Positions 38,841 through 57,150 of a stretch of 64,000 nt of DNA are shown here, one piece after another. Source of the stretch: Bordetella parapertussis (GTDB lineage Bacteria; Pseudomonadota; Gammaproteobacteria; Burkholderiales; Thiobacillaceae). Position 1 is the stretch's first letter, and each line of letters begins with the position of its first letter. Location of the stretch: the NCBI GenBank assembly GCA_945890495.1, contig CAMDCO010000005.1, positions 1-64,000 of the forward strand, in the 5' to 3' direction. The notes beneath the pieces are model-generated. The model was not told where the DNA came from, did no database searches, and worked only from the letters and a program-made list of their open reading frames with translations. Both the position numbers and the translations under genes were made by a program.

Positions 38841-38854
38841 TTGACATCGGTCAA
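38841..38854 (+). promoter_or_regulatory. FNR/DNR-type box upstream of nosZ
   Basis: TTGAC-ATCG-GTCAA is a perfect inverted repeat of the FNR/CRP-family form (consensus TTGAT-N4-ATCAA). It is centred about 86 bp before the nosZ ATG. Activation under low oxygen or by NO/nitrogen oxides would be expected. Confidence 0.72.
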
Positions 38855-41283: not shown

Positions 41284-41297
41284 TTGATACGGGTCAA
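41284..41297 (+). promoter_or_regulatory. FNR/DNR-type box upstream of the dihaem cytochrome gene
   Basis: TTGAT-ACGG-GTCAA matches the FNR consensus at nine of ten positions. It lies about 94 bp before the cytochrome ATG, a distance like that at nosZ. Confidence 0.65.
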
Positions 41298-42155: not shown

Positions 42156-43118
42156 ATGTCCAGCTTTGTTCAGGACTTTACCGGTAACAAATCCAGCCGC
42201 TTTGCCCTGATGGCACTGCTGTTACTGGCCGTCGCGTATTTCACGCCCATCTGGTGGGTCTCGCTCACCGCCCCCAACTACCCGCCCGACGCCTTCCCAG
42301 ACGGGATTCGCATCCACTTCCACTTTGACGGGGTCAAAAACGGCTGCACCCAAGCCATCATCAAAAAGAGTGAGATCTATCAGGGCGACCTAGGTAGCGA
42401 AAACGAGGCCACCGAGCGCTATCAGAAGGATCAGGCCCAACAGCTCGACTGTGTGCACGAGATGAATACCATCAACCACTATGTCGGCATGTATCCGATC
42501 GCCTCGGGCGGCCCGGTGGAAAAGGAGTTATCCAAGTACATCATGGCCTTCCTCGGCGTCATGCTGCTGGCCTTTGCCGCCAACAACCGCAAGCGCGAAC
42601 TGCAAATCCTAGGCGTGGGCTTTGCGGCCGTCGCTGTCTGGATGTACGGTCAAATGCTGGGACTCGGCGCGCTTGATGCCTATGTCCAGACCTATGAAGA
42701 GGCCACGGCCACCTTCTTCAACGAGCCCGAGGTGATCACCCGCTGGAGCGCCAACCTGCGCTTGGCGATGCATGTCGTCATGGGCGGGATGCTTGCCGCC
42801 ATGCTGATCGTCCTCGCCGGTTGCTGGAAGTGGCGCAAGTTTTCACTGCTACTGGCCTTTGTACCCGCCTTGCTGCCGGTCTTTTTCGTCCTCGAATACG
42901 CCGGCTGGCTGTGGTTCTTCGGCCATAACCTGCACCCCTGGGGCGCATTCACGGTGAAGCCCTTCATGCCGACCGTGTTTGGCGAGGGGATGGTGGCGCA
43001 GTTCTCCACCTTCTCCTACCCGGATATTGGTTACGCCCTGTTGCTGGCCCTCTCTGGTCTGCTGATCGTGGCTACCCTGCTGCGCCGCAAGCAACTGGCC
43101 CAAGACACCGCCCCCTGA
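42156..43118 (+). CDS. nosB: NosB-like membrane protein of the clade II nos cluster
   Basis: 320-residue inner-membrane protein with about six hydrophobic segments: one near residue 15, a large periplasmic loop with two cysteines at about 50-115, then five segments in the second half. No cofactor motif is visible. Its position right after nosZ and the cytochrome gene and before nosD matches NosB, a membrane protein characteristic of clade II nos clusters. Its biochemical role is unsettled; a part in electron flow or assembly is assumed. Name given by context and topology. Confidence 0.7.
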   Translation: MSSFVQDFTGNKSSRFALMALLLLAVAYFTPIWWVSLTAPNYPPDAFPDGIRIHFHFDGVKNGCTQAIIKKSEIYQGDLGSENEATERYQKDQAQQLDCVHEMNTINHYVGMYPIASGGPVEKELSKYIMAFLGVMLLAFAANNRKRELQILGVGFAAVAVWMYGQMLGLGALDAYVQTYEEATATFFNEPEVITRWSANLRLAMHVVMGGMLAAMLIVLAGCWKWRKFSLLLAFVPALLPVFFVLEYAGWLWFFGHNLHPWGAFTVKPFMPTVFGEGMVAQFSTFSYPDIGYALLLALSGLLIVATLLRRKQLAQDTAP

Positions 43119-43129
43119 AACGGCCCGCC

Positions 43130-44476
43130 ATGCGTCGCACTCGACTCCTCGCCCTGCTCGCCATCGCCCTGATCTTGCCGGCCGGACAATCCGCGGGCTA
43201 CATTGCCGCTGAGGACGCCGTACAAGACTTCAGCGCCATGGGCGCGGTGCGCAACACCGTTGATGCCGAGCGCCCCGTGTACCCGCTCTATCTGCGCGAC
43301 AAGCGCATCCATGGCCTGCAACCGTTTCAGGCGCTGGTCGATGCCGCGCCCGCCGGTTCGGTGCTGCGCCCTCCGCCGGGAATCTACGCCGGGCCGGTAC
43401 TGCTAACCAAACCGCTGACCATCGAGGGCGATGGCAAGGTCACCATCGACGCCGGTGACAAGGGCGTGGTGTTCCGCATCGAGACCGAAGATGCCGTGCT
43501 GCGCGGCGTGCGCTTGACCGGCTCGGGCGAGTCGCACGACATGGAAGATGCCGCACTGGAGATTCGTGGCCATCGCAACACCGTCGAAAACCTGATCATC
43601 GACAATAGCCTGTTCGGCATCGACCTGCGCCAGGCCAACGACAACATCGTACGCAACAACCGCATCACCTCCAAGATCGCCGATCTGGGCATGCGCGGCG
43701 ATGCCATCCGCCTCTGGTACAGCCTGCGCAACCGCATCGAAGGCAACCAGATCAAAGATTCACGCGATATCGTGATCTGGTATTCAAACAACAATGCCTT
43801 GATCAACAACACCAGCAGCGGCAGCCGCTACTCCATCCACTTCATGTTCGCGCAACATAATCTGGTCGAAGGCAATCGCTTCACCAACAACGCCGTCGGC
43901 ATCTATGTGATGTACACGGAAGGCGTCATCATCCGCAACAATCTGGTCTCCCACGCCACTGGAGCCACCGGGATGGGCATTGGCTTCAAGGAGGCCAGCG
44001 ACTCCATTCTTGAAAACAATCAAATCATCTATTGCGCGACGGGTATCGCCTCCGATCTATCGCCCTTCCAGCCTGACACTCAGATATGGATGCGCAACAA
44101 CCGGTTAGCGTACAACGGCATCGGCCTGTTGTTTAACAGTGAACGCGAAGGCAATGTCGTCACCAACAACCGTTTTGTCGGCAACCTGACCGATGTCGCC
44201 GTCAACGGCGGCGGCACCGCCCGGCAAAACACTTGGTCGGGTAATGTGTGGGATGTGTACGAAGGCTTCGACCGCAACGGCGATGGGCGCGGCGACCTGC
44301 CCCATCGTCAATACGCCTATGCCGATCGCATCTGGATGGATACGCCCATCACCCAGTTCTTTCGTGCCTCGCCCGCACTGGAACTGCTCGACTTTCTAGA
44401 ACGGCTGGCCCCGTTCTCCGAGCCCGACTTGCTGTTTGAAGACACGCGCCCCCGCATGAGGCCCGCCCATGGCTAG
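43130..44476 (+). CDS. nosD: Periplasmic NosD, copper-site maturation protein
   Basis: 448-residue exported protein. The signal peptide ends near QSAGY. The body is a right-handed parallel beta-helix of CASH/NosD repeats (RNNRIT, IEGNQIKD, NNTSSGSRYSIHFMFA, EGNRFTNN). It ends with FDRNGDGRGDLPHRQYAYAD and a LELLDFLERLAPFSEPD tail. NosD works with the ABC transporter NosFY in assembling the CuZ centre. It starts 11 bp after nosB and overlaps nosG by 8 bp. Confidence 0.94.
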   Translation: MRRTRLLALLAIALILPAGQSAGYIAAEDAVQDFSAMGAVRNTVDAERPVYPLYLRDKRIHGLQPFQALVDAAPAGSVLRPPPGIYAGPVLLTKPLTIEGDGKVTIDAGDKGVVFRIETEDAVLRGVRLTGSGESHDMEDAALEIRGHRNTVENLIIDNSLFGIDLRQANDNIVRNNRITSKIADLGMRGDAIRLWYSLRNRIEGNQIKDSRDIVIWYSNNNALINNTSSGSRYSIHFMFAQHNLVEGNRFTNNAVGIYVMYTEGVIIRNNLVSHATGATGMGIGFKEASDSILENNQIIYCATGIASDLSPFQPDTQIWMRNNRLAYNGIGLLFNSEREGNVVTNNRFVGNLTDVAVNGGGTARQNTWSGNVWDVYEGFDRNGDGRGDLPHRQYAYADRIWMDTPITQFFRASPALELLDFLERLAPFSEPDLLFEDTRPRMRPAHG

Positions 44477-45260
44477 AGAACCCGAACGCCGCCGCTTTCT
44501 GCGTACCGGATTAGGCCTGGCGGCCCTCTTGGGTGCCAGCGGCATCGCCTGGTTGCCCACACCCGCCGCATCCGCCAACCGCCTGCGCCCCCCCGGCGCG
44601 CTGGAAGAACAAGACTACCTGTCGGCCTGCATCAAATGTGGCCAATGCGTCCAAGTCTGCCCGGTCTCGGCCCTCAAACTCGCCGATCTCGGCGACGGCT
44701 ACGGCATCGGCGCACCCTATATCGATGCCCGCGCCCAGGCCTGTGATTTTTCCTGTGACGCGGTGCAATGCATCCTCGCCTGCCCGACCGGGGCACTGAC
44801 CTATCACAAGCCGACTGACCTTTCCATCCGCACCGGCATGCCCGTCGCCCAAGCCCCGGTGCTTCTGGCCAAGAAAAAAGACCCTGAACCAACGCTGAAC
44901 CTGAAGGAGCGCATGGGCGTTGCCGTGCTGACCCGACCCGATGCCTGCCTTGCCCGTCAGGGCAAAGGCCATAAAGGGCCGGCGCGGGCCGCAGGGTTCG
45001 CCGGGCACCTGCGCTTCATGGAGGTGGATCGCTGGAAACCGATCCCGCTCAACGATCACCCGTTTGCGGTGGAGATCTGCGACCTGTGCGTACAAACCTG
45101 TCCGATCGAGGGCGCGATCCGCCTGGTTCCCATGGCTAACGGAGGCATGACCCCGGAAGTGCTGGAACCCTGTCTGGGCTGCGGCGTGTGCGAGATGGCC
45201 TGCCCCACCGAGCCGGCCTCTATTGAAATCAAGCCGCGCCAAGGGTGGCCACATGCATAA
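44469..45260 (+). CDS. nosG: NosG, Tat-exported polyferredoxin (NapG-like)
   Basis: 263-residue iron-sulfur protein. The N terminus has a twin-arginine export signal (RRRFLRTGLG). Four [4Fe-4S] cluster motifs follow: CIKCGQCVQVCP near residue 55, CDFSCDAVQCILACP near 94, CDLCVQTCP near 208 and CLGCGVCEMACP near 237. By analogy with NapG/NosG it takes electrons from the NosH membrane subunit. It is coupled by overlap to nosD and nosH. Confidence 0.93.
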   Translation: MAREPERRRFLRTGLGLAALLGASGIAWLPTPAASANRLRPPGALEEQDYLSACIKCGQCVQVCPVSALKLADLGDGYGIGAPYIDARAQACDFSCDAVQCILACPTGALTYHKPTDLSIRTGMPVAQAPVLLAKKKDPEPTLNLKERMGVAVLTRPDACLARQGKGHKGPARAAGFAGHLRFMEVDRWKPIPLNDHPFAVEICDLCVQTCPIEGAIRLVPMANGGMTPEVLEPCLGCGVCEMACPTEPASIEIKPRQGWPHA

Positions 45261-46224
45261 CCGCTTCAGCGAATCTTGGCGGCAGTTGCTGGGCTACGCG
45301 CCGCGCAGGCCCGTGGCCGGACAGCAAAGGCCCGAGGCACAGGTCATTCACCGCACGAAGCGAGAAGATGTCAATCGCGTCGCAGAACTAAAGGCGCACC
45401 GCGCCACGCTCGTGCACTCGAACACATGGCGCAACCGCCGTTGGGTCGTTCTGATCCTCACCAACCTGCTGTTCGTGGCCTCCTTCTGGCTCGACATCCA
45501 GTTGCTGGAAGGCTCGCTCACCGCCTCGCGCTTCCTCGGCTTTCACATGATCGACCTCAACGCCGCCCTGCAAGTGGCGTTGGCGCACAAACACATCCCC
45601 ATCAACCTGATCATCGGCACCGTCACCATTCTCCTGTTCTGGGCCTTGCTGGGGGGGCGAGCGTTTTGTTCCTGGGTGTGTCCGTACCACCTGCTCGCCG
45701 AATGGACCGAACGGCTGCATCTCGCGCTGGCCGAGCGCAAGGTCGTCTCTGACCACAGCTTCCACCGTGGCCTGCGTACCGTATTGTGGCTGCTGTTTGC
45801 CATCCTGGCCTTCATCAGCGGCTATACCGTGTTCGAAACCCTGTCGCCCACAGGCATCCTGTCGCGCGCCCTGATCTACGGGCCTGGCCTAGGGTTGGCC
45901 TGGGTCTTATTGCTACTGCTGTTCGAAGTCGCCTACTCACGCCGCGCCTGGTGCCGCTATTTCTGCCCCATCGGCCTCACCTATGGCGCGGTGGGCAGCG
46001 TCTCCCCGCTACAGATCGGCTATCACCTCGACAGTTGTTTCCACGAAGGCGATTGCCGCAAGGTCTGTCTGGTGCCGCATGTGCTCGATTGCGTCATCAA
46101 AGGCCGCGCCAGCGACACCCATGTCAACCTCGGCGCCGACTGCACCCGCTGCGGTCTATGCGTCGATACCTGTCCCACCGGCTCGTTGCGCTTTGAAATA
46201 CGCGGCCTGCAAAACCTGTTGTAG
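45253..46224 (+). CDS. nosH: NosH, membrane polyferredoxin (NapH-like quinol dehydrogenase)
   Basis: 323-residue inner-membrane protein with four helices. CxxxCP motifs lie on the membrane loops (FCSWVCPYHLLAEW, WCRYFCPIGLTYG). Two ferredoxin clusters lie at the C terminus (CRKVCLVPH region; CTRCGLCVDTCP). NapH/NosH proteins are thought to oxidise menaquinol and pass electrons to the G subunit. In this operon the menaquinone genes follow, which fits that role. The ATG at 45253 overlaps nosG by 8 bp. Confidence 0.93.
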   Translation: MHNRFSESWRQLLGYAPRRPVAGQQRPEAQVIHRTKREDVNRVAELKAHRATLVHSNTWRNRRWVVLILTNLLFVASFWLDIQLLEGSLTASRFLGFHMIDLNAALQVALAHKHIPINLIIGTVTILLFWALLGGRAFCSWVCPYHLLAEWTERLHLALAERKVVSDHSFHRGLRTVLWLLFAILAFISGYTVFETLSPTGILSRALIYGPGLGLAWVLLLLLFEVAYSRRAWCRYFCPIGLTYGAVGSVSPLQIGYHLDSCFHEGDCRKVCLVPHVLDCVIKGRASDTHVNLGADCTRCGLCVDTCPTGSLRFEIRGLQNLL

Positions 46225-46246
46225 GCCTGTAGTAAAGTCACCCCCC

Positions 46247-47104
46247 ATGATCGAACTCAAACAACTCTCCAAACACTTCCGCAAAAGCCGCGTCCTCGAT
46301 GGCATCGACCTCACGGTGGCCGATGGCGAACGCATCGCCCTGATCGGTTCCAACGGGGCCGGAAAGACCACCCTGATCCGCTGCCTGCTGGGGGAATATA
46401 TCCACGAAGGCACGGTGCTCATTAGGGGCATCGATCCGCGCCAAGATCGTGCCCGCGTCCTGCGCGAGATTGGCTTCGTGCCACAGTTGCCGCCGCCGCT
46501 GCGCATGTCGGTACACGAGCTGCTGCGCTTTACCAGCGAGCTGACCGATACCCCCGTTTCCGCCATGACCGCCATTGCCGCCCGTTTAGGGCTAGATCTC
46601 GCTCGCGCCGAACACCTGCCTTTCGCCAAGTTATCGGGCGGTCAAAAACAAAAGGTGCTGATTGCCCTGGCGCTAGGCCGTCCTTGCTCGCTCTTGATTC
46701 TGGACGAGCCGGCCGCCAACCTCGACCCTGAAGCGCGGCACGCCTTTTTTGACCTGCTGGCCGAACAGGTCGCCGCGCGCCCCATCACCCTGCTCATCTC
46801 CAGCCATCGCCTCGACGAAGTGGCGCCGCTGGTTAACCGCGTAGTGGAAATGGACATGGGTCGCATCGTCCTCGACGACAGCGTAGCCGACAGCGTGGCC
46901 CTGGACGGCAAACTCAGCGCGCGCCTTGTCCTGTCCCGCGCCGAACCGGCCATCGCCCGTGCGCTGGGCCAATGGGGACTGACCGCAGACGCGGCGGGCC
47001 TCGCTTGGGAGGGCGTCATCGCCAGCCCCGACCGTCTGCGCTTCATCGGCATGCTATCGCGCTATGTCGGCCTGATCCACAGCGTCTCCATCGAGGAGCT
47101 GTGA
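46247..47104 (+). CDS. nosF: NosF, ABC transporter ATP-binding protein
   Basis: 285-residue ATPase. Walker A GSNGAGKTTLI near residue 36, signature LSGGQKQKVLIAL near 130, Walker B LLILDEPAANLD near 150. With NosY it forms the transporter that supports copper/sulfur-site assembly of NosZ. The ATG at 46247 begins MIELKQLSK. It is 22 bp after nosH and 5 bp before nosL. Confidence 0.95.
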   Translation: MIELKQLSKHFRKSRVLDGIDLTVADGERIALIGSNGAGKTTLIRCLLGEYIHEGTVLIRGIDPRQDRARVLREIGFVPQLPPPLRMSVHELLRFTSELTDTPVSAMTAIAARLGLDLARAEHLPFAKLSGGQKQKVLIALALGRPCSLLILDEPAANLDPEARHAFFDLLAEQVAARPITLLISSHRLDEVAPLVNRVVEMDMGRIVLDDSVADSVALDGKLSARLVLSRAEPAIARALGQWGLTADAAGLAWEGVIASPDRLRFIGMLSRYVGLIHSVSIEEL

Positions 47105-47109
47105 GCCCC

Positions 47110-47613
47110 ATGAACCGCCGCGAACTATTGCTGGGTTGCGCCGCCATCCCCGTGCTCTGGCTGACCGGCTGTGGCGAGAAGGATGCCGGGCACGGCCCTG
47201 GCAAGATTCATTGGGATCGCGACACCTGCGTGCGCTGCAACATGATTATCAGCGACCGCCGCTTTGCCGCGCAGATTCGTGGCGGCGAGATGGGCGGCGA
47301 GATGGGCGGCGAGATGGGCGGCAAGAAGGGCGGCAAGACGGGAGTTGGCAAACGCAAGCTCTACAAGTTCGACGATATCGGCTGCGCGCTGTTCTGGCTC
47401 AAGGAACAAAAAATCCCTTGGGCGGACGCGCCTGACACCGAGATCTGGGTGACCGACGCCAAAACCGGGGAGTGGCTGGAGGCCCGCACGGCACATTACA
47501 TCGCCGGGAAGACCACGCCCATGCTCTACGGCTACGGTGCGCTGCGTGAGCCGGTGGCCGGCAGTGTCGATTTTAAAACCATGAAGGCGGCCATTCTGGC
47601 CAAGGGACGCTAA
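47110..47613 (+). CDS. nosL: NosL, copper-binding outer-membrane-type lipoprotein
   Basis: 167-residue lipoprotein. The lipobox is LTGC near residue 20. The Cu(I) site region is DTCVRCNMIISDRRFAAQI near 37-55, with the conserved Met. NosL delivers copper to NosZ/NosD. Unlike typical NosL, an insert of three GGEM tetrapeptides and two GGK units (from 12-bp tandem repeats at 47281-47330) follows the copper site. Stop and the nosY start overlap (TAATG). Confidence 0.94.
   Translation: MNRRELLLGCAAIPVLWLTGCGEKDAGHGPGKIHWDRDTCVRCNMIISDRRFAAQIRGGEMGGEMGGEMGGKKGGKTGVGKRKLYKFDDIGCALFWLKEQKIPWADAPDTEIWVTDAKTGEWLEARTAHYIAGKTTPMLYGYGALREPVAGSVDFKTMKAAILAKGR
47281..47330 (+). repeat. 12-bp in-frame tandem repeat in nosL
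   Basis: GGCGGCGAGATG is repeated three times and then degenerates to GGCGGCAAGAAG and GGCGGCAAG. It encodes GGEM-GGEM-GGEM-GGKK-GGK directly after the copper-binding segment. Confidence 0.9.
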
Positions 47614-48455
47614 TGTTTAATGACCTTAAAACCAGCCTCAAACCCGCACTGCGCCTAGAGATGACCGAATCCCTGCGGGCGCGCTGGTTCATGCTCTACG
47701 CCTTGGTATTCGGCGGCATCGTCGCCTTGCTGTTCGCCTTCGGTCTGACCGAATCGCGCATCCTGGGCTTCATCGGCCTGTCGCGCCTCCTGGTCACCTA
47801 TATCCAATTGGTGATGGCCATCCTGCCGGTGTTTGTGCTGATCTCCACCGTACGATCCATCGCCGGTGACCGCGAGGCGGGCGTGTTCGAATACCTGCTG
47901 TCACTACCGGTTTCGCTGGCCGGCTGGTTCTGGGGCAAGTTTATCGGCCGTTACCTGATGGTCTTCGCGCCCGTGTTTGCCGCCATGCTGGGCGCCGTGC
48001 TGTGGGCGCTGATTACTGCGATCGAAGTGCCGTGGGACATCTTCCTGTATTACACCGCCCTTCTGGCCAGCCTGTCGCTCTGCTTCCTCGGCATCGCCAT
48101 GCTGATCTCGGTACTGGCCCGTTCGTCCGACATCGCCCAGGGCGTCGCCTTTCTGGTCTGGCTGTTCCTGCTCCTGTTCCTCGACCTCATCCTGCTCGGC
48201 GTGCTGATCCAGGAACAAATCCCGTCCGAGATCGCCATCACCATCGCCCTCTTCAACCCCCTGCAAACCTTCCGCACCGCCGCCCTGATGCTGTTCGACC
48301 CGCAACTCATCGTTCTGGGCCCGGCCGCCTTCGTACTGTTCGACCTGTTCGGCACCCTCGGCTACAAGATCTTCGCGCTGCTCTACCCGGCGACCATCGG
48401 ACTTGTGTGCGCCTTCTTGGCCTATCGCAGCTTTAAACGCGGAGACCTGCTATGA
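47613..48455 (+). CDS. nosY: NosY, ABC transporter permease
   Basis: 280-residue inner-membrane permease with six helices in the ABC-2-like NosY arrangement. Two are before SIAGDREAGVFEYLLSLPVS (the coupling segment), then WFWGKFIGRYLMVF and four more. It is the partner of NosF and NosD. It starts within the nosL stop and overlaps the thioredoxin-like gene by four bases. Confidence 0.95.
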   Translation: MFNDLKTSLKPALRLEMTESLRARWFMLYALVFGGIVALLFAFGLTESRILGFIGLSRLLVTYIQLVMAILPVFVLISTVRSIAGDREAGVFEYLLSLPVSLAGWFWGKFIGRYLMVFAPVFAAMLGAVLWALITAIEVPWDIFLYYTALLASLSLCFLGIAMLISVLARSSDIAQGVAFLVWLFLLLFLDLILLGVLIQEQIPSEIAITIALFNPLQTFRTAALMLFDPQLIVLGPAAFVLFDLFGTLGYKIFALLYPATIGLVCAFLAYRSFKRGDLL

Positions 48456-48949
48456 AATTAACCCTGAAACGCGGCCTGGCCCTCTTGGGTCTGTGCCTAT
48501 TCCCCAGTCTGTTCCCCAGCCTGGCGCTCGCCCTGAATCTGTATGAACAACCGGGCCTGCAATTCGCCCGCCCCGATGCCGCGCCGCTCGATCTAACCAG
48601 CCTGCGCGGCAAGCCCGCCGTCATCAACTTCTGGGCCACCTGGTGCCCGCCTTGTCGCGACGAACTACCCGAACTGGCGGCCCTGCATAGCAAAACCGGT
48701 GCGACCTTCGTTGGCATCGCGGTAGAAGACAACCTGAAATTCGCCGCCGAATTCGCCCGCGTTGAAGATGTCGTCTATCCCATCGCCGGCGGAAGAGACA
48801 CGGCCATTGCCTTGATGAAAACCTTGGGCAACACCTATGCAGTAATGCCCTTCACCGTGTTGATCGACGCTAACGGCGAGGTGCTCTGGGCGCGCAAGGG
48901 ACGCATCCCCATGGACGAACTCGAGCAGCGCCTGCGGGATCTGCGTTGA
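48452..48949 (+). CDS. TlpA-like thioredoxin-fold protein
   Basis: 165-residue exported thiol-disulfide protein. The signal peptide is followed by NFWATWCPPCRDELPEL near residue 52 (CPPC active site) and the cis-Pro in VMPFTVLIDANG. Such TlpA proteins keep the CuA cysteines of target enzymes reduced for metalation, and can serve cytochrome c maturation. Within the nos operon, reduction of NosZ CuA cysteines is the simplest inference. It overlaps nosY by four bases. Confidence 0.88.
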   Translation: MKLTLKRGLALLGLCLFPSLFPSLALALNLYEQPGLQFARPDAAPLDLTSLRGKPAVINFWATWCPPCRDELPELAALHSKTGATFVGIAVEDNLKFAAEFARVEDVVYPIAGGRDTAIALMKTLGNTYAVMPFTVLIDANGEVLWARKGRIPMDELEQRLRDLR

Positions 48950-48970
48950 GACCGTGTTGAGCCACAGGCC

Positions 48971-50185
48971 ATGCCCGTCTGGCCGCTCCTGCTCTGCCTG
49001 CTGATCGCGCCTGCCGCAGCGAGTCCGTTACCCCCCCTGCAACCCTTGCTCGATGCCGCCCCGCCGCACGCCATTCTCAAACTCGGCCCCGGCTGCTACG
49101 CCGGCCCCGCCGTCATTCGCAAGCCGCTGACCCTGGACGGCGGCGGCCGAGCCTGCATCGACAACAACGGGCGCGGCACCATACTAACCGTGCTGGCCGC
49201 CGACACCGTCATCCGTGGCCTGCGCCTGACCGGATCGGGAGAGAGCTTCGACGCCATGGACGCCGGTATCTTGGTCGAGGCCGACCGCGTGCGCATCGAG
49301 GACAACCGCATCGAGGCTGTGTTGTTCGGCATCCACCTCAAGGCGGCCAATGACGCGCGGATCCTGCGCAACACCGTGCGCGGCCAACCCGCGCCGCTCA
49401 ACCTGCGCGGCGACGCAGTGCGTATCTGGTACGGCCATGGCAATCGCATCGAGGCCAACGATTTCGCCGGCCTGCGCGACATCACCCTGGCCAACGCCCC
49501 GGGCAACCAGATTCGTAAAAACCGTATCCGCGCGGGGCGCTACGCCATCCATCTAATCTTCTCGCCTAACAACGCCATCCTCGACAACGACATCGCCCAC
49601 ACCACCACGGGCATCGCCGTGCTGTATTCAGACAACGCCCGCATTGAGGGCAACCGCATCCACCATGTCCGCTCCGAGGCCGGGGCCGCGCTGGCCCTCA
49701 AAGAAACGAACGGCACGCAGATTCGCCGCAACGAGATCCTGCATTGCGCCGTGGGTCTGCAAGCCAACTCACCGCTCTACGGCCACGACACCCTCCAGAT
49801 TGAAGGCAACCGCTTTGCCCACAACGACACCGCGCTGTACTTTTATGGCGACAATGGCGGCCATGTGCTGCGTCACAACCGCTTCGAAAAGAATCTCACC
49901 CCCTTGATGGTCAGCCATGCCAACGCCACGCGCGGCCATGTCTGGGAAGACAACGCTTGGGACGACTACGAAGGTTTCGACCGCAACGGCGACGGTATCG
50001 GCGACACCCCGCATGAACTCTGGCTGTACGCCGACCGCATCTGGATGGAAACCCCCAGCACCCGTTTCTTTCGCAACAGCCCTGGCATGGAACTGCTCGA
50101 CTTCCTTGAACGACTCGCCCCTTTTTCCGCCCCTGAGCGCCTGCTTCAGGACCCCCGCCCCCGGATAACACGGCAGGCACCATGA
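48971..50185 (+). CDS. Second NosD paralogue
   Basis: 404-residue NosD-like beta-helix protein. It has a signal peptide (LLLCLLIAPAAASP), CASH repeats (LRGDAVRIWYGHGNRIE, RYAIHLIFSPNN) and the same terminal block as NosD (FDRNGDGIGDTPHELWLYAD; MELLDFLERLAPFSAPE). It lacks about 40 residues of the first NosD's N terminus. Its place between the TlpA-like gene and menA is unusual. Its stop overlaps the menA start by four bases, tying the nos and men parts together. Confidence 0.88.
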   Translation: MPVWPLLLCLLIAPAAASPLPPLQPLLDAAPPHAILKLGPGCYAGPAVIRKPLTLDGGGRACIDNNGRGTILTVLAADTVIRGLRLTGSGESFDAMDAGILVEADRVRIEDNRIEAVLFGIHLKAANDARILRNTVRGQPAPLNLRGDAVRIWYGHGNRIEANDFAGLRDITLANAPGNQIRKNRIRAGRYAIHLIFSPNNAILDNDIAHTTTGIAVLYSDNARIEGNRIHHVRSEAGAALALKETNGTQIRRNEILHCAVGLQANSPLYGHDTLQIEGNRFAHNDTALYFYGDNGGHVLRHNRFEKNLTPLMVSHANATRGHVWEDNAWDDYEGFDRNGDGIGDTPHELWLYADRIWMETPSTRFFRNSPGMELLDFLERLAPFSAPERLLQDPRPRITRQAP

Positions 50186-51090
50186 GCGTCCACACCCCGC
50201 CGACGCGCTGGCAAATCGTCCAGGCTGCTATCCGTCCCCAGACCCTGTCACTGACCGCAACGCCGATCCTGGTCGGGATCAGCCTGGCCTGGGCTGAGGG
50301 CGCCACACCCCACGGCGGGATTGCGCTGGCGACCTTGCTAACCGCTGGGCTCATCCAGATCGGCGTCAACCTGCACAACGATGCGACCGATCACCTGCGC
50401 GGCAACGACACCGCCGCACGCATCGGCCCGTTACGCGTCACCGCCGCAGGTTGGGCCAGCGCAAAGGCGGTGTTGCGCGCGGCCTATCTCAGCCTCGGTC
50501 TGGCCTTTATGCTGGGCATCAGCTTGGCCCTAGCTGGCGGCCCGGTCATCGTCGCCATCGGAATCGCCTCCCTGCTGGCGGCGCTGGCCTATTCCGGCGG
50601 ACCCCGACCGCTGTCCCATAGCGCCCTCGGCGAGTTATTCGTCTGGGCCTTCTTCGGCCTTGCCGCTGTCGCAGGGAGTCACTGGCTGCAAGCCGGACAG
50701 TTTTCCGCCGCCGCGTTAATCGCCGGGGCTGCGCTCGGCCTACCCGCCGCTGCCGTCCTCTTGGTCAACAACCTGCGCGACATCGACACCGACGCCATCG
50801 CCGGTCGCCGCACCCTCGCCGCCCGACTCGGCGAGGCACACAGCCGTCGCCTGCATACCGTGCTGATGCTCACCCCCTTTCTATCTCTACCCTTCCTGGC
50901 CGCCCACCTCCATGCGCTGTGGCCCGGGTTGGCCCTGCTGGCGCTACCCGCCTGCCTGCGAGTCAGCGCCCGTATGCAGCACACCACGGGCCCGGCCCTG
51001 AACGCAGTTCTTGCCGACACCGCACGCGCCCAATTACAGTTCGGCTGTCTGCTATCCATAGCGTATCTGCTCATCCTTCTCCTGCCATGA
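50182..51090 (+). CDS. menA: 1,4-dihydroxy-2-naphthoate polyprenyltransferase
   Basis: 302-residue UbiA-family membrane enzyme that attaches the isoprenoid tail to DHNA, giving demethylmenaquinone. About eight helices are present. The two Asp-rich motifs are [12 protein letters not shown] near residue 66 and [16 protein letters not shown] near 194, the latter with the MenA-like form. The start overlaps the nosD2 stop (ATGA) and the stop overlaps menB. Confidence 0.93.
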
Positions 51091-51917
51091 CCTCCTTCGC
51101 CTGGATCCCCGCCGCCGAGTTCACCGACATTCGCTACGAGTTGTCCGGTGACGGCATCGCCAAGATTTCCATCAACCGCCCCGAACGACGCAACGCCTTC
51201 CGGCCCGAAACCGTAAACGAGCTGATGGACGCCTTTTCGCGGGCTCATCGCGACCCCGCCGTCGGTGTGATCATCTTCACCGGCGTCGGCGATCAGGCCT
51301 TCTGTTCCGGGGGCGACCAAACGGTGCGTGGCGACGATGGTGGCTATCACGATGCCGCGACCGACACACCGCACCTCAATGTGCTCGACCTGCAAATGCA
51401 GATTCGCCGCTTACCCAAACCCGTCGTGGCGATGGTCGCGGGCTATGCCATCGGCGGTGGCCATGTACTACACCTCGTTTGCGACCTGACCCTCGCCGCC
51501 GACAACGCCCGTTTCGGCCAGACCGGCCCGCGCGTCGGCAGTTTTGATGCGGGCCTCGGTGCCGGCCTGATGGCGCGCGCCATTGGCCTTAAACGGGCCA
51601 AAGAAATTTGGCTGCTGTGCCGCCAGTACGATGCACAAACGGCCCTGGACTGGGGCCTGGTCAACGCCGTCGTGCCACTTGCCCAATTAGAAGAAGAAAC
51701 GGTGGCTTGGTGCCGCGAGATGTTGCAACTCTCGCCCACCGCACTGCGCCTGATCAAGGCCGGTTTCAACGCCGATAGCGACGGACTGGCCGGCATTCAG
51801 GAGTTGGCCGGCAATGCCACAGGGCTCTTTTACATGACCGCCGAGGGGCGGGAAGGGCGCGATGCCTGGCTAGAAAAACGCCCGCCAGACTTCACAAAAT
51901 ACCGTCGCCGCCCCTAG
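51087..51917 (+). CDS. menB: 1,4-dihydroxy-2-naphthoyl-CoA synthase
   Basis: 276-residue crotonase-fold enzyme closing the second ring of DHNA-CoA from o-succinylbenzoyl-CoA. Oxyanion-hole and active-site segments are visible: [15 protein letters not shown] near residue 72, [16 protein letters not shown] near 121 and [14 protein letters not shown] near 145. These are MenB-specific rather than general enoyl-CoA hydratase. The ATG at 51087 overlaps the menA stop. Confidence 0.96.
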
Positions 51918-51924
51918 CAGCCCC

Positions 51925-52926
51925 ATGTCGGCGCGCGTCCTTCCCTACTGCCTACCCCTCGTGCGCCCTTGGGTCGCGGCCTCCGTGACCCTCACCGAGC
52001 GGCGCGGCTGGCTGATTGCGCTCGATGAAGACGGGCTCACCGGATGGGGCGATTGCGCACCGCTCCCCTCCGCCCACAGCGAGATGCCCTGCCGCACCGC
52101 GCTGGCGCACCTGGCGGCCACCGGCACACTTCCGCCAGATGCGCCGCCAGAGACCCTCTGGGCACTAGATACCGCACGGCATGACCTTGACGCGCAACGA
52201 CAAGGGATTCCGCTCGCACGCGCCCTTGCCCCGGATGCAGCGTCAGAGATCGCCGTCAATGCCGCGCTCGGGACGCTGGATGCGGGTTGTGTGGAACGCG
52301 CCCATACCGCCCGAATGCAAGGGTTCCGCATCGCCAAGATCAAGGTCGGCCTCGCCCCCATCGCGGAAGAGTTGGCCCATTTGGGCGAAATTGCCGCCGT
52401 CTTTGGTGGGCGGCTAAGGCTCGACGCCAACCGCGCATGGCCCGAGGCCGCAGCGCGACGCTTCCTGACGGCCATCGCCGATCTACCCATCGATGCCGTT
52501 GAAGAGCCCTTGGCACACCCCTCTCCCCATACGCTTGCTGCATTGCAGGCGGCCTTACCCTACGCCCTCGCCGTTGATGAATCCCTGCCCAGCCTCGGTA
52601 TCCGTGCGCTGATCGACACCCGTGCCGTCCGCCGTCTCGTGCTCAAGCCGGCGCGTCTGGGCCGCTTCGCGGCAACACACGCCATCGCCCGACAGGCTCA
52701 AGCCGCCGGCATCGAGATCGTCCTCACCTCGGTCATCGATTCGGCCATCGGCGTCGCCGCTGCCGCGCATCTGGCCGCCGCACTCGCGCCCAACGAAACC
52801 CACGGGCTGGGCACCTGTGCGTGGCTGGCGGCCGATGTCGCCACCGCACCGCCCATCGTAGACGGCAGAATGGCCTTGCCGCAGTGCCCCGGGCTGTGTA
52901 TCCAGCCCCACAAAGACCCCGCCTAA
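51925..52926 (+). CDS. menC: o-Succinylbenzoate synthase
   Basis: 333-residue enolase-superfamily enzyme dehydrating SHCHC to o-succinylbenzoate. Catalytic residues are seen in IAKIKVG (Lys near residue 139), RLDANRAW (Asp), DAVEEPLA (Glu), AVDESLP (Asp) and LVLKPAR (Lys). It starts 7 bp after menB and ends 1 bp before the menEF fusion. Confidence 0.93.
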   Translation: MSARVLPYCLPLVRPWVAASVTLTERRGWLIALDEDGLTGWGDCAPLPSAHSEMPCRTALAHLAATGTLPPDAPPETLWALDTARHDLDAQRQGIPLARALAPDAASEIAVNAALGTLDAGCVERAHTARMQGFRIAKIKVGLAPIAEELAHLGEIAAVFGGRLRLDANRAWPEAAARRFLTAIADLPIDAVEEPLAHPSPHTLAALQAALPYALAVDESLPSLGIRALIDTRAVRRLVLKPARLGRFAATHAIARQAQAAGIEIVLTSVIDSAIGVAAAAHLAAALAPNETHGLGTCAWLAADVATAPPIVDGRMALPQCPGLCIQPHKDPA

Positions 52927-52927
52927 G

Positions 52928-55486
52928 ATGCCAACCTTACCGATCGTCCAAGCCTGGGTTCGCCGCATGCCTGCAAACGCCACCGCCCTGATCCTGCCCA
53001 ATGGCGAAACGCGGCGTTTTGGCGACTGGGCCCCACAGCAAGACGGCCTGCGCCTACTCCATGGCGATACGACAAGCCTTGCGTGCGGCCTCATTGACGC
53101 CGCCCTCAGCGGCGACACGGCCTTTCCTTTGCCGCCCGGCATCCAGCCCGAACAACGGCACTTACTGGTCACCCTGGCCCAGGCCGCTGCGACGCCAAAA
53201 CTGGCGCTCATCATCGCCACCAGCGGCTCGAGCGGCCAACCCAAAGGCGTGCGTCTCTCTTGGCGCGCCATCGCCGCCGCCAGCCGCATGAGCGCCCGGG
53301 CGCTAAACTTGCAGCGCGGCGATGCCTGGCTGGTCTGCCTGCCGCTCTATCACATCGGCGGCGCCATGATCCTGTACCGCTGCCTACGCGCCGGGGCCAC
53401 GGCCGTGGTGCATGACGGCTTTAATGTTGCGGCCATCGCGCGTGACCTTACCGTGCAACGCATCACTCACCTGTCACTCGTACCCGCGATGCTCGCCAAA
53501 CTCCTGGAGGCGGGCGTTCAACCGGTACCCACATTGAAATGCGTCTTGGTCGGCGGTGCAGCGCTTAATGACACGCTACGAGAACAGGCCCGCGCAGCCG
53601 GTTGGCCCATCCGCACAAGCTGGGGCATGAGCGAGACCAGCGCGATGATTACGCTCGACGGTCGACCCCTGCCCGGCGTGAGGCTGCGCGTCGCCCAAAC
53701 AGGCGTGCTCGAGGTCGCCACTCCAGCCCGCATGACCGGCTATCTGAGTGAAGCGGATATAAACGAATGGGTCACGACACACGACCTAGGGCACCTCGAT
53801 GCCGAGGGCCGAGTACACATCCTGGGCCGCGCCGATGCGATGTTGATTTCCGGCGGCGAGAACATCCATCCCCTTGAAGTTGAGGCACTACTGACCGCAT
53901 GCCCAGGCCTGCGTGAGGTCGGCATCACGGGGCTGCATGACCCCGCCTGGGGCGACATCGTCGCCTGTGCCTACCGTGGAGAGATTACGGAAACGGCCCT
54001 GGCCGACTGGTGTCGCGCCCATATCCCCGCTGCCCGTCGTCCCCGCCGTTTTCTGCGCCTCGGTCACTTGCCACACTTGGCCAATGGCAAGCTCGACCGC
54101 TGCGCACTGCCAAAACTATGGCCGCTCCATCATGACGCGGAAAACCTGGTGGACTGGACATGGGTGGCGAACGAGCTAGAACGACTCGCGCGGACGGCCG
54201 GAGAGGCCCAACTGTTAAGCGTCACGCTGCCGCTCTCCCGCTGGCCGGTCGCCGCACGACTCACCCCCACCGACGGCATTTTCTGGCAACGGCCCGATGC
54301 GGGCCTACGGATGCTGGGCATGGGTCGTGCCTGCCACTTCACCAGCACCGGCACTGGCCGCTTTGCGGCGCTACAAGCCGCGCATCGGGGCCTCATGGAA
54401 TCGTTGCGCTACACCCCAAACACCCCACCCCCCCTAGCCTTCACCGGCTTCGCCTTTGCCCCCCACGGCGGTGCGCCGCTGCCTAACACAGCCCTCTGGG
54501 TGCCCGAGCTATTGCTGCGCGAACACGCCGGAAAAATCTGGCTAACCCTATCGTATGCCGTCTCTCATTTCCGCCATGCCATGCACCGCTGGCAAGCGCA
54601 ATGGCAGGCCTTGCAGGCCAAAGACACCTTAGGGAAAAACGAGGCCACCCAGGCGCGCTGCGCAATGCTCGATGCCCAACCCAACCCCATCACAGACGCC
54701 CTGTTCCGGGCGCGTGGCCGGGTCGCGCTGGAGGCCATCACGCAAGGCCTCGTAGACAAGCTGGTGTTGACCCGCACGCTGCATCTCGACAGTGGCATGC
54801 CCATCCCCCCTGACGCGATCCTCACCACACTCGCTGCACAGCAGCCCAACTGCGCCATCTATGGCGTTAGCCAGGAAGGCCGTGTGTTTCTCGGCGCATC
54901 GCCAGAAACCCTGCTGACCTTGCGTGGCGATCAGGTCAGCGCAGACGCGCTGGCTGGTACGGCTTGGCACGAGGCCGCGCTGCCCTTGAGTGCCCACAAA
55001 AATCACCGCGAGCACGACTTTGTCGCCCACGCCATCGCCCAAGCCTTGGCCCCTCTGTGTCTGGATTTACGCATCCCTGCCACCCCCGAAGTCATGCAAC
55101 TCCATGGCCTGAGCCATCTACGACGCCGCGTCACGGCACAACGACAACCGACCACTTCGGCCTTCGATCTCATCGCCCGCTTACATCCCACCTCAGCCGT
55201 CGGCGGCGTTCCCCGCGAGGCCGCACTCGACTGGCTGGCACACCAAGGCGATGTACGCAGCGCGTGGTACACCGGCGGCGTCGGCTGGATTGATGCCCGC
55301 GGCGATTGCGACATCGCCGTCGCCCTGCGTTGTGGTCTATTTGAAGGCAGCGCAATAACCCTGTACGCCGGTGCCGGTTTTGTCGCCGGCTCCGTCGTCG
55401 AGCAGGAGTTCGCCGAGACCGAGGCCAAATTTCATACCCTGCGCGAGGCCATCGCCTGCGCGTGCAAAGAGAGGGCACCCGCATGA
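52928..55486 (+). CDS. Fused o-succinylbenzoate-CoA ligase and isochorismate synthase (MenE-MenF)
   Basis: 852-residue two-domain protein. Residues 1 to about 395 are an adenylating enzyme of MenE type: P-loop ATSGSSGQPKGV near 100, SWGMSETS near 236, LGRADAMLISGGENIHPLEV near 300 and the catalytic Lys in NGKLDRC near 387. After a short linker, about 405-852 is an isochorismate synthase (MenF/EntC type): FLGASPETLL, HPTSAVGGVP, the SAWYTGGVGWID segment and LYAGAGFVAGSVVEQEF with EAKF. The frame is continuous with no internal stop, and both active sites look complete. The two domains catalyse the first and a later step of the pathway, which are not consecutive. It overlaps menD by four bases. 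Confidence 0.92.
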   Translation: MPTLPIVQAWVRRMPANATALILPNGETRRFGDWAPQQDGLRLLHGDTTSLACGLIDAALSGDTAFPLPPGIQPEQRHLLVTLAQAAATPKLALIIATSGSSGQPKGVRLSWRAIAAASRMSARALNLQRGDAWLVCLPLYHIGGAMILYRCLRAGATAVVHDGFNVAAIARDLTVQRITHLSLVPAMLAKLLEAGVQPVPTLKCVLVGGAALNDTLREQARAAGWPIRTSWGMSETSAMITLDGRPLPGVRLRVAQTGVLEVATPARMTGYLSEADINEWVTTHDLGHLDAEGRVHILGRADAMLISGGENIHPLEVEALLTACPGLREVGITGLHDPAWGDIVACAYRGEITETALADWCRAHIPAARRPRRFLRLGHLPHLANGKLDRCALPKLWPLHHDAENLVDWTWVANELERLARTAGEAQLLSVTLPLSRWPVAARLTPTDGIFWQRPDAGLRMLGMGRACHFTSTGTGRFAALQAAHRGLMESLRYTPNTPPPLAFTGFAFAPHGGAPLPNTALWVPELLLREHAGKIWLTLSYAVSHFRHAMHRWQAQWQALQAKDTLGKNEATQARCAMLDAQPNPITDALFRARGRVALEAITQGLVDKLVLTRTLHLDSGMPIPPDAILTTLAAQQPNCAIYGVSQEGRVFLGASPETLLTLRGDQVSADALAGTAWHEAALPLSAHKNHREHDFVAHAIAQALAPLCLDLRIPATPEVMQLHGLSHLRRRVTAQRQPTTSAFDLIARLHPTSAVGGVPREAALDWLAHQGDVRSAWYTGGVGWIDARGDCDIAVALRCGLFEGSAITLYAGAGFVAGSVVEQEFAETEAKFHTLREAIACACKERAPA

Positions 55487-57150
55487 ACACCGCCACACTC
55501 AACCTCGCTTGGGCTGATGCCTTCATCGCCGCCCTAACGGCCGCCGGGTTGCGCCATATTGTGCTCGCCCCCGGCGCCCGTTCGGCCCCCTTGGCGGTTG
55601 CCGCCTTGCGTCGCCCGGAGTTGACCTGCCATGTCATCAGCGACGAACGCGCGGCGGGTTATTTTGGCCTCGGCCTGGCCCGCATCACGCGCACACCGGC
55701 CGCCGTGATCTGCACCTCAGGTACCGCCGCCGCCAACCTGCTGCCCGCCGTCATGGAGGCCACCCTGGCCGCCGTGCCCCTGCTCATCCTCAGCGCCGAC
55801 CGGCCGCCCGAGGCGCACGGCTGGGGAAGCAACCAAACCGCCGACCAACTCAAGCTGTATGGCGACCAGGTCCGACGCTTTGTGGCATTACCTGTGCCCT
55901 TTGTCCGCGAAGAGGGCAGCCTCGATCTTCGCTTCCTAAACACCCTCGCCGCTCAACTGATCGAGGCCTGTGTGTCACCGCACCCCGGCCCAGTACACGC
56001 CAATCAGCCCTTTCGGGAACCGCTGCTACCCATCGACCCCGCCGCCATCCCGCCCGCACCCAACCTGCCCATGTCCGTCACGATTCACGCCCCGGTGCCG
56101 CAAGCAGCCTCCGGGATTGAGGCTGTGGCAGCGCGGTTATCCGGACGACCCGGCGTTATCGTCTGCGGTGAGGGTGACTATCCCGAGACCTTCGCCGCAG
56201 CACTCGTCGCATTGGCCGAAAAACTGGGCGCACCCATCTTGGCCGAACCGCTCTCCAACCTGCGTTTTGGGCCGCATGACCGCCGCCTCGTCCTAGCCCG
56301 TGCATCCCGCTTCTTGCGCCGCACCGACCTGCCCCAACCCGAATGGGTGCTGCGGCTAGGCCGTTTTCCCGTCTCGCGTACATTGGAACGCTGGCTCAGC
56401 GGTCTGGAACACACGCTGCACCTCCTGATCGCCCCACCGGGCCCCTGGCCAGACCCGCTCCAGCGCAGCGACATTATCCTGCGCGGCGATGCTTGGGCCA
56501 CCGTCACAGCCCTGCACGCCGCCCCCACAGCAAGCGCCCCCGCAGGTTGGCTTTCCACCTGGCAGGCCCAGGAGATCGACGCCGCCCAGCACGCCGACCT
56601 CTGCCATGATGGCCACGCGTTTGCGCAGGCCGTCAGCACCCTGATTGCGGCGCTACCTGCAAAGGCCGCTCTATTCGTCGGCAATTCATTGTCGATTCGC
56701 GCGGTAGATTCATTCTCCGGCACCGATGCCAAGCCCATCGCCCTGTACGGCAATCGCGGCGCCTCGGGTATCGACGGCAATATCGCCACCGCCGCCGGGA
56801 TCGCCGCCGCCAGCGGCGCGCCCATGGCCGTATTGATAGGCGATCAAACCGCCCTGCACGACTGCGGCAGCTTGGCCTTACTGGCCGGTCGGCCCGTGGT
56901 CATCATCGTCGTGGACAATGGCGGCGGCGGCATCTTCGAACAACTGGCCTTCAGTGCGGCCTTGCCACGCGCGCTTTTGACACGCGGCTTTATTGCGCCG
57001 CCCCAAGTTGATTTCGCCGCGCTGGCCGCCGCGTTTGGGCTGTCGTATGCCGAGACCGGTGATACACAGCGGCTTCAGCCCCTGCTGGATCAGGCCTTTA
57101 CCAGCGGCCAGCCGTGGCTCATCCGACTCGCGCTCAAATCAAGCGCGTAA
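55483..57150 (+). CDS. menD: SEPHCHC synthase
   Basis: 555-residue thiamine-diphosphate enzyme that adds 2-oxoglutarate to isochorismate. N-terminal pyrimidine-binding part: APGARSAPLAVAAL near residue 34 and ERAAGYFGLGLAR. C-terminal ThDP/Mg site: GNRGASGIDGNIATAAGIAA, LIGDQTALHD and VDNGGGGIFEQL. The ATG at 55483 overlaps the menEF stop. It is the last gene of the 15-kb run. menH does not follow. Confidence 0.96.
   Translation: MNTATLNLAWADAFIAALTAAGLRHIVLAPGARSAPLAVAALRRPELTCHVISDERAAGYFGLGLARITRTPAAVICTSGTAAANLLPAVMEATLAAVPLLILSADRPPEAHGWGSNQTADQLKLYGDQVRRFVALPVPFVREEGSLDLRFLNTLAAQLIEACVSPHPGPVHANQPFREPLLPIDPAAIPPAPNLPMSVTIHAPVPQAASGIEAVAARLSGRPGVIVCGEGDYPETFAAALVALAEKLGAPILAEPLSNLRFGPHDRRLVLARASRFLRRTDLPQPEWVLRLGRFPVSRTLERWLSGLEHTLHLLIAPPGPWPDPLQRSDIILRGDAWATVTALHAAPTASAPAGWLSTWQAQEIDAAQHADLCHDGHAFAQAVSTLIAALPAKAALFVGNSLSIRAVDSFSGTDAKPIALYGNRGASGIDGNIATAAGIAAASGAPMAVLIGDQTALHDCGSLALLAGRPVVIIVVDNGGGGIFEQLAFSAALPRALLTRGFIAPPQVDFAALAAAFGLSYAETGDTQRLQPLLDQAFTSGQPWLIRLALKSSA

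What the first reader, a model, noticed from the sequence alone, without database searches (positions are those of the whole stretch)
42156..57150. One ~15-kb run links N2O-reductase assembly genes directly to menaquinone biosynthesis
Seen: nosB-nosD-nosG-nosH-nosF-nosL-nosY-tlpA-nosD2-menA-menB-menC-menEF-menD are all on the plus strand. The largest gap is 22 bp and most junctions are 4-11 bp overlaps, including nosD2/menA. Known: clade II nos clusters carry NosG/NosH, thought to draw on menaquinol, but the men genes are normally elsewhere. Inference: the host may use ubiquinone for its main chain and build menaquinone specifically when it respires N2O, with donor quinone and reductase made from one transcript. 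The module could be transferable as a self-contained N2O respiration unit.
Basis: partly seen in the sequence, partly recalled or inferred. Interest (0 to 1): 0.93.

Follow-up and report, generated by a model that had tools for sequence, protein, structure and literature searches.

The report
N2O-respiration operon carrying menaquinone synthesis genes
In an uncultured bacterium that is likely a relative of Thiobacillus, the genes that assemble the enzyme destroying the greenhouse gas N2O run without a break into genes predicted to make menaquinone, and bacteria of two other families carry the same pairing, so the cell likely makes its own electron carrier as part of its N2O-respiration kit.

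Summary
From nosB (42156) to menD (57150), 14 same-strand genes run with 7 overlaps of 1-8 bp and 6 gaps of 1-22 bp; nosD2/menA overlap by 4 bp. Family models confirm clade II NosZ upstream, NosH, two NosD, MenA, MenB, MenC, a MenE-MenF fusion and MenD. It recurs: of 399 genomes of the order (window's included), 22 of 29 with clade II NosZ have MenD against 4 of 370 others (8 of 13 genera against 2 of 146), and 12 of the 22 hold nos and men within about 20 kb, in three families and several gene orders. Linked clusters of relatives often add a dedicated menG. In the host the two halves have different histories: nos groups with its genus and family, MenD inside the Azospira/Dechloromonas family (both 100/100). 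A congener has the same flanks with a single MenA-like gene at that spot. The host has ubiA, one ubiE, no MqnA/D-family hit and no second MenD. Against: 7 of 29 clade II genomes, and the host's own family, manage without men. That menaquinol feeds NosGH is untested. My searches found no paper on the linkage.

The parts
38841..38854 (+). FNR/CRP-type palindrome TTGACATCGGTCAA upstream of nosZ
   Evidence: One of only two TTGA[CT]N4[AG]TCAA sites in the window; a site of that form stands at the aligned place in congeners L150 and L151. Function inferred; the motif's meaning is recalled.
38934..41234 (+). nosZ, Sec-dependent (clade II) N2O reductase
   Evidence: TIGR04246 910 bits, cut-off 625; start codon chosen
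41284..41297 (+). FNR/CRP-type palindrome TTGATACGGGTCAA upstream of the cytochrome c gene
   Evidence: second of the two sites; present at the aligned place in L150 and L151
41334..42023 (+). cytochrome c, two heme domains (nosC-like)
   Evidence: PF00034, two stretches
42156..43118 (+). nosB-like protein
   Evidence: no family model hit; 57-67% identical proteins at the same place in the closely similar clusters
43130..44476 (+). nosD (first copy)
   Evidence: TIGR04247 380.5 bits, cut-off 300
44469..45260 (+). nosG, polyferredoxin
   Evidence: NapG/MauM models 112-134 bits, below cut-offs; 4Fe-4S domains
45253..46224 (+). nosH, NapH-type membrane ferredoxin
   Evidence: TIGR02163 236.7 bits, cut-off 213
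46247..47104 (+). nosF, ABC ATPase
   Evidence: PF00005; start
47110..47613 (+). nosL-like protein
   Evidence: no model hit in the window copy; relative at the same place in L113 hits PF05573, 26.1 bits, cut-off 24
47613..48455 (+). nosY, ABC-2 permease
   Evidence: PF12679; 70-79% identical to 13 relatives
48452..48949 (+). tlpA-like thioredoxin
   Evidence: PF08534; ResA/TlpA models below cut-off
48971..50185 (+). nosD2, second NosD
   Evidence: TIGR04247 321.7 bits, cut-off 300
50182..51090 (+). menA, DHNA polyprenyltransferase; first gene of the men block, 4-bp overlap with nosD2
   Evidence: TIGR00751 189.5 bits, cut-off 102
51087..51917 (+). menB, DHNA-CoA synthase
   Evidence: TIGR01929 396.8 bits, cut-off 342.7
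51925..52926 (+). menC, o-succinylbenzoate synthase
   Evidence: TIGR01927 138.9 bits, cut-off 130.6
52928..55486 (+). menE-menF fusion (OSB-CoA ligase + isochorismate synthase), 852 aa
   Evidence: TIGR01923 246.6 bits (below cut-off 330) over residues 89-393; TIGR00543 250.9 bits (cut-off 224.8) over 504-842; three full-length fused relatives among the 120 listed matches
55483..57150 (+). menD, SEPHCHC synthase; last gene of the run
   Evidence: TIGR00173 403 bits, cut-off 244

Best explanation
The run is a clade II N2O-reductase assembly operon whose tail carries a predicted menaquinone-synthesis block, by its tree imported from another bacterial family, likely so that the cell makes menaquinol for the NosGH quinol dehydrogenase together with the reductase. 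Shown: gene identity by family models, packing, recurrence in other families, different tree neighbours of the two halves, and the place of the men block between nosD2 and the next chromosomal genes. Inferred: promoters at nosZ and at the cytochrome c gene (each with an FNR/CRP-type box) drive anoxic transcription that reads through into the men genes; MenF, MenD, MenC, MenE, MenB and MenA turn chorismate into demethylmenaquinone with a host thioesterase and without a dedicated MenH; the host's single UbiE methylates it; NosH and NosG oxidise menaquinol and pass electrons through the cytochrome c to NosZ. Inferred too: ubiquinone remains the quinone of the main chain.
For: (a) 14 genes in one run, nosD2/menA 4-bp overlap; one promoter-like match in 19 kb (4.0 expected), not next to menA. 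(b) MenD in 22 of 29 clade II NosZ genomes, 4 of 370 others, 0 of 39 genomes whose NosZ stays below the clade II cut-off (Fisher p 2.6e-26; by genus 8 of 13 against 2 of 146, p 6.4e-9). (c) nos and men within about 20 kb in 12 of those 22, in families f1, f15 and f21 with at least three gene orders; 2 more have menE beside nosY at a contig end. (d) Linked clusters of relatives carry a second UbiE/MenG and in G297 a 4HBT thioesterase between menC and nosZ. (e) MenD tree: host with G272, G109, G236 of family f21 at 100/100; f21 held together without the host is rejected, p-AU 6e-8 (group named after the tree was seen); nos tree: host with congeners and family at 100/100. (f) Congener L150 aligns up to 50166 and again from 57190; the 7 kb between is the men block. 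(g) Host has ubiA and ubiE, no MqnA/D-family match. (h) Two FNR-type boxes, also present in two congeners.
Against: 7 of 29 clade II genomes have no MenD, and each of the 7 has NosG and NosH relatives, G007, G025, G113 and G331 at 60-74% identity; of the 9 other clade II genomes in the host's family 8 were tested and none has MenB. So NosGH seems able to work with another quinol. In Azospira and Dechloromonas menD lies away from nos. No FNR-type box stands before nosB or menA; an inverted repeat (seen by eye) lies between the cytochrome c gene and nosB; terminator-like matches are slightly above chance (22 against 15.3, sd 4.2), six of them on the + strand inside genes of the run. The block lacks menG, menH and menI. 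No expression or quinone data. The draft is 81% complete, so a second pathway cannot be excluded. Menaquinol as donor of NosGH is recalled from Wolinella work; I saw only that paper's title in a reference list and a sentence on NosC1/C2.
Confidence: 0.62

Rival explanations
1. General anaerobic quinone: the men genes serve all anaerobic respiration or redox balance, and sit behind nos only because that operon is already switched on without oxygen.
For: 7 of 29 clade II genomes do without MenD and 8 of 8 tested clade II relatives in the family without MenB; Azospira and Dechloromonas keep menD apart from nos; FNR-type boxes suggest anoxic control in general.
Against: 0 of 39 genomes with a NosZ below the clade II cut-off have MenD, although they too have an N2O reductase; different gene orders keep men next to nos in two other families.
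Confidence: 0.27
2. Assembly chimera: the draft genome wrongly joins a nos contig of the host to a men contig of a co-occurring Rhodocyclaceae-like bacterium.
For: nos and men have different tree neighbours; the genome is a 40-contig draft.
Against: Host-like sequence continues on both sides: congener L150 aligns to 50166 and from 57190 onward, so two false joins would be needed, one of them giving a 4-bp nosD2/menA overlap. GC3 of the men genes (0.73-0.78) lies in the range of the other genes measured (0.72-0.84). Other genomes show real nos-men pairing. A 96% identical MenE-MenF fusion is in an ENA-sourced cluster, which supports the fusion but not the join.
Confidence: 0.06
3. The block makes DHNA or another naphthoquinone for export or cross-feeding rather than menaquinone for this cell.
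For: No menG in the block; DHNA cross-feeding is described in lactic acid bacteria (PMC10746273, passages seen).
Against: menA, which commits DHNA to a membrane quinone, is the first gene of the block, and linked clusters of relatives include menG.
Confidence: 0.04

Closest known systems
Clade II (Sec-type) nos cluster nosZ-nosB-nosD-nosG-nosC-nosH-nosF-nosY-nosL (Wolinella, Dechloromonas; composition recalled)
   Same: NosZ type, the NosB/NosD/NosG/NosH/NosF/NosL/NosY set and a cytochrome c
   Different: tlpA and a second nosD, then menA-menB-menC-menEF-menD in the same run
Classical menaquinone pathway (MenF-D-H-C-E-B-I-A-G)
   Same: MenA, B, C, D, E and F by family models
   Different: MenE and MenF fused in one chain; no MenH, MenI or MenG in the block; placed behind a respiratory operon
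Sulfuricella-type nos-men locus (family f15: G150, G193, G297, G326, G355, G411 and others)
   Same: nos and men genes contiguous
   Different: men genes on both sides of nos (menB-menA-tlpA-menC before nosZ; menG-menE-menF-menD after nosY)
Family f21 nos-men locus (G109, G236, G272)
   Same: nosZ..nosY-tlpA, then menA, menB, menC, menE, menF, menD in that order; closest MenD relatives of the window
   Different: menG between tlpA and menA; menE and menF separate; nosD2 after menD in G109 and G236

Membership tests
clade II nos cluster | Sec-dependent NosZ | tested here: met
   TIGR04246 910 bits over cut-off 625; TAT-type TIGR04244 394 bits, below its cut-off 625
clade II nos cluster | NosB, NosG and NosH in the cluster | tested here: inconclusive
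   NosH over cut-off; NosG NapG-like below cut-offs; NosB without any model, named by position and similarity to relatives
clade II nos cluster | NosD, NosF, NosY maturation set | tested here: met
   NosD over cut-off; NosF and NosY by ABC ATPase and ABC-2 permease domains and position
classical menaquinone pathway | MenF, MenD, MenC, MenB, MenA | tested here: met
   each over the cut-off of a TIGRFAM model; MenA is below the separate NF004751 cut-off (256.6 of 264)
classical menaquinone pathway | MenE (OSB-CoA ligase) | tested here: inconclusive
   best match is MenE but 246.6 bits against a cut-off of 330; the match starts at model position 112
classical menaquinone pathway | methyltransferase MenG/UbiE in the genome | tested here: met
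   one TIGR01934 match over cut-off at G000:C20, not in the block
classical menaquinone pathway | MenH and a DHNA-CoA thioesterase | not tested
   no gene is left over for them inside the block; the rest of the genome was not searched for them
self-contained transferable N2O-respiration unit | nos and men share one history | tested here: not met
   nos tree: with congeners and family; MenD tree: inside family f21
menaquinone-fed N2O respiration | electrons from menaquinol reach NosZ through NosGH | not testable with these tools
   needs quinone profiling and mutants

The most novel reading that the evidence does not exclude
In ubiquinone-making Betaproteobacteria the clade II nos operon is a platform that keeps recruiting its own naphthoquinone supply, at three grades: a full chorismate-to-menaquinone block (window, Sulfuricella and Rhodocyclaceae types); only the last two steps, menG and menA, beside nos in genomes where no MenD or MenB was found (G485-G488), which would live on DHNA taken from neighbours; and a relocated MenA-like prenyltransferase of unknown substrate behind nosD2 or tlpA (congener L150, Sulfurisoma and kin). 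N2O consumption by some denitrifiers would then depend on vitamin-K precursors leaked by other microbes.
Probability: 0.3. Interest if true: 0.88.

Novelty: new variant of a known kind. Interest (0 to 1): 0.8.

Why it matters
Organisms with N2O reductase are the known biological sink for a strong greenhouse gas, and clade II reducers are a large part of them (recalled). It also fits a known oddity: in a survey of 1,294 genomes the only two betaproteobacteria with both the classical menaquinone pathway and UbiC were Ca. Accumulibacter phosphatis and Dechloromonas aromatica (PMC3914697, passages seen); Dechloromonas- and Accumulibacter-named records are among the clade II nos loci found here, though men genes were not checked in the Accumulibacter ones.

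Tried and rejected
Idea rejected: clade II genomes without men have a MenA-like enzyme instead (suggested). In the order sample that gene occurs in 5 of 29 clade II genomes and 50 of 370 others (p 0.58), and in the unlinked stretches that I read its usual place is between ruvC and ruvA or beside them (gene names by eye); so its mere presence says nothing about nos. Viral scan with MenEF: one unrelated AMP-binding hit. The MenA tree resolved poorly (5 of 19 branches starred) and is not used. GC and GC3 show no sign of recent import. MqnA/D family in 33 genomes: two weak matches, none over cut-off. Paper searches that could have shown the linkage; papers opened for passages only: PMC11102522, PMC10746228, PMC3914697, PMC6747719, PMC10746273, PMC10390337; no listing or passage that I saw describes it. 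Supplementary files and most subscription papers could not be searched.

Rows dropped: tblastn pieces covering under 55% of the query were left out and one best piece per gene and genome was used (G236 MenD came in two pieces); the divergent clusters G330, G341, G450 and taxa with fewer than 5 of 7 nos genes were left out. One search looked at the best 80 of 428 relatives, many cut by contig ends; one search counted men matches of at least 35% identity. Some genomes entered twice under two handles (G477 = G004, G478 = G001, G483 = G331, G479 = G071, G484 = G050, judged by identical coordinates).
Full report
What is there. The window lies in contig C5 of a 1.69-Mb, 40-contig draft genome, 81% complete. 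ORF lists and family models confirm nosZ (clade II by TIGR04246, 910 bits), a cytochrome c, then nosB-nosD-nosG-nosH-nosF-nosL-nosY-tlpA-nosD2-menA-menB-menC-menEF-menD on one strand. With the start codons I chose, the 13 junctions give 7 overlaps of 1-8 bp and 6 gaps of 1-22 bp. NosB and NosL hit no model here; NosG and the MenE half fall below their curated cut-offs.

Is it more than one odd contig. A search of the order (399 genomes, the window's included) found MenD at E 1e-50 or better in 26 and clade II NosZ over cut-off in 29; 22 have both, 4 have MenD alone (G255, G390, G418, G443), 7 have clade II NosZ alone (G007, G025, G113, G330, G331, G341, G450), and 0 of the 39 genomes whose NosZ stays below the cut-off (presumably clade I) have MenD (Fisher p 2.6e-26; 21 of 28 without the window genome, p 3.1e-25). 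Genomes are not independent; by genus it is 8 of 13 against 2 of 146 (p 6.4e-9).

Linkage. Reading the fetched stretches with the window's proteins, nos and men lie within about 20 kb in 12 of the 22: G000, G103, G109, G150, G155, G193, G236, G272, G297, G326, G355, G411. Two more (G437, G461) have menE beside nosY at a contig end. In G267, G302, G360 and G388 menD is on the same contig as nosZ but far away; in G198, G383, G416 and G442 it is on another contig. Of the best 80 of 428 named loci found by NosY, 13 carry a true men gene (menG included, at least 35% identity) and 5 a MenA-like gene; many loci are cut by contig ends.

Extra genes in relatives. Between tlpA and menA of G109 and between nosY and menE of G297 lies a UbiE/MenG methyltransferase over the TIGR01934 cut-off; in G272 one overlaps menA. 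Across 39 genomes such an extra copy lies in the nos locus of 13 of the 22, and in the separate men cluster of G267 and G383; the other 7, the host among them, have none there. G297 has a 4HBT thioesterase between menC and nosZ, a candidate for the DHNA-CoA thioesterase. The host's one UbiE is on contig C20.

Two histories. The MenD tree of 26 genomes puts the host inside family f21, with G272, G109 and G236, at 100/100; forcing f21 together without the host is rejected (p-AU 6e-8; I named the group after seeing the tree). The tree of seven concatenated Nos proteins from 36 clusters puts it with its two congeners, then with four clusters of its family (two of them, L156 and L225, assigned by identical coordinates with G071 and G050), at 100/100. 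With the MenEF protein, G109 (adjacent genes) and G103 were the only other genomes of the 148 relatives with a match better than E 1e-40; none of the 4 congeners or of the rest of the family came near. Nucleotide alignment with congener L150 runs to window 50166 (nosD2) and resumes at 57190; in between L150 has one MenA-like gene, itself overlapping nosD2 by 4 bp, where the window has the 7-kb men block. So men genes were apparently imported to the tail of a resident nos operon, perhaps replacing that gene. The same alignment argues against a false join.

Quinones of the host. UbiA is over its cut-off and UbiE present; the MqnA/D family is not found; MenD and MenB occur once each over cut-off. 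So the host can be expected to make ubiquinone and, through this block, menaquinone. Of the 33 genomes, UbiA is over cut-off in 30.

Regulation. TTGA[CT]N4[AG]TCAA occurs twice in 64 kb, before nosZ and before the cytochrome c gene, and a site of that form stands at both places in the two congeners. The looser consensus with two mismatches gave 30 matches against 11.8 expected, spread over the window, so only these two sites are used. No such box precedes nosB or menA. An inverted repeat, seen by eye, stands between the cytochrome c gene and nosB. The sigma-70 scan found one match in 19 kb, inside nosD2 about 1 kb before menA (4.0 expected); terminator-like matches were 22 against 15.3 expected (sd 4.2), six on the + strand within genes of the run. 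Transcription of men from the nos promoters is therefore inferred, not shown.

Against the tight reading. All 7 clade II genomes without MenD have NosG and NosH relatives, four of them (G007, G025, G113, G331) at 60-74% identity, and no MqnA/D-family gene over cut-off. In the host's family 10 of 117 genomes have clade II NosZ; of the 9 others 8 were tested for MenB and none has it (G511 not tested). NosGH must then be able to use another quinol, or these strains take a naphthoquinone from outside. In Azospira and Dechloromonas menD is apart from nos, though menB lies 29-33 kb from nosZ in four g84 genomes and a UbiA-family gene, probably menA, about 8 kb from nosZ in Azospira.

Menaquinone at the last steps only. 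Four genomes (G485-G488; L187, L224, L227, L186) have menG and menA in the nos neighbourhood, in L186 with menA on the other strand, but no MenD over cut-off and no MenB at E 1e-60. They are bins of unknown completeness. If real, they would use DHNA from outside, as described for Lactiplantibacillus plantarum (PMC10746273, passages).

Literature. Nine searches of the held library with combinations of nos, clade II, menaquinone and genus terms gave no paper that reports the linkage in the listings and passages I saw. The presence of the classical pathway in two betaproteobacteria was noted in 2014 (PMC3914697, passages).

Verdict. A real, recurrent coupling of a greenhouse-gas-consuming respiratory operon with genes for a second quinone; a new variant of known parts rather than a new system. 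The functional step, menaquinol to NosGH to NosZ, is likely but untested, and the men-less relatives show that it is not the only way.

Noticed in passing
L150:12499-13461 (congener of the host): A MenA-like UbiA-family prenyltransferase (33% to the window's MenA, below the NCBIfam cut-offs) overlaps nosD2 by 4 bp exactly where the window has the men block; 54-57% identical genes follow tlpA in L194, L200, L205 and L221.
   Followed up: yes
L302, L303, L304, L306, L309 (ruvC region): In the unlinked cases read, the same MenA-like gene follows ruvC, mostly with ruvA after it (ruv names by eye); its substrate is unknown.
   Followed up: partly
L187, L224, L227, L186: menG and menA in the nos neighbourhood of genomes without detectable MenD or MenB: possible DHNA scavengers.
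   Followed up: partly
window 52928-55486: MenE-MenF fusion protein; three full-length fused relatives (96, 71 and 65% identical) among the 120 matches listed of 405.
   Followed up: partly
G236 and G109 (L107, L035, L148): Two clade II nosZ copies with equal model scores about 5 kb apart beside the nos-men locus; G236 resembles Ca. Nitricoxidivorans perseverans, identity unconfirmed. G236 MenD comes in two pieces, so it may be frameshifted.
   Followed up: no
G302, G416, G442, G198 (genus g84, Dechloromonas-type) and G360: menB lies 29-33 kb from nosZ on the same contig in all four although menD is far away or on another contig; in G360 a UbiA-family gene, probably menA, lies about 8 kb from nosZ.
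   Followed up: no
window 47290-47330 (nosL): Short repeat MGGEMGGEMGGKKGGK inside the window's NosL, which may be why it misses the NosL model.
   Followed up: no
G330 (L312): A genome with divergent nos has a strong MenB (460.8 bits) but no MenD over cut-off; a gene that looks MenE-like by eye lies next to it.
   Followed up: no
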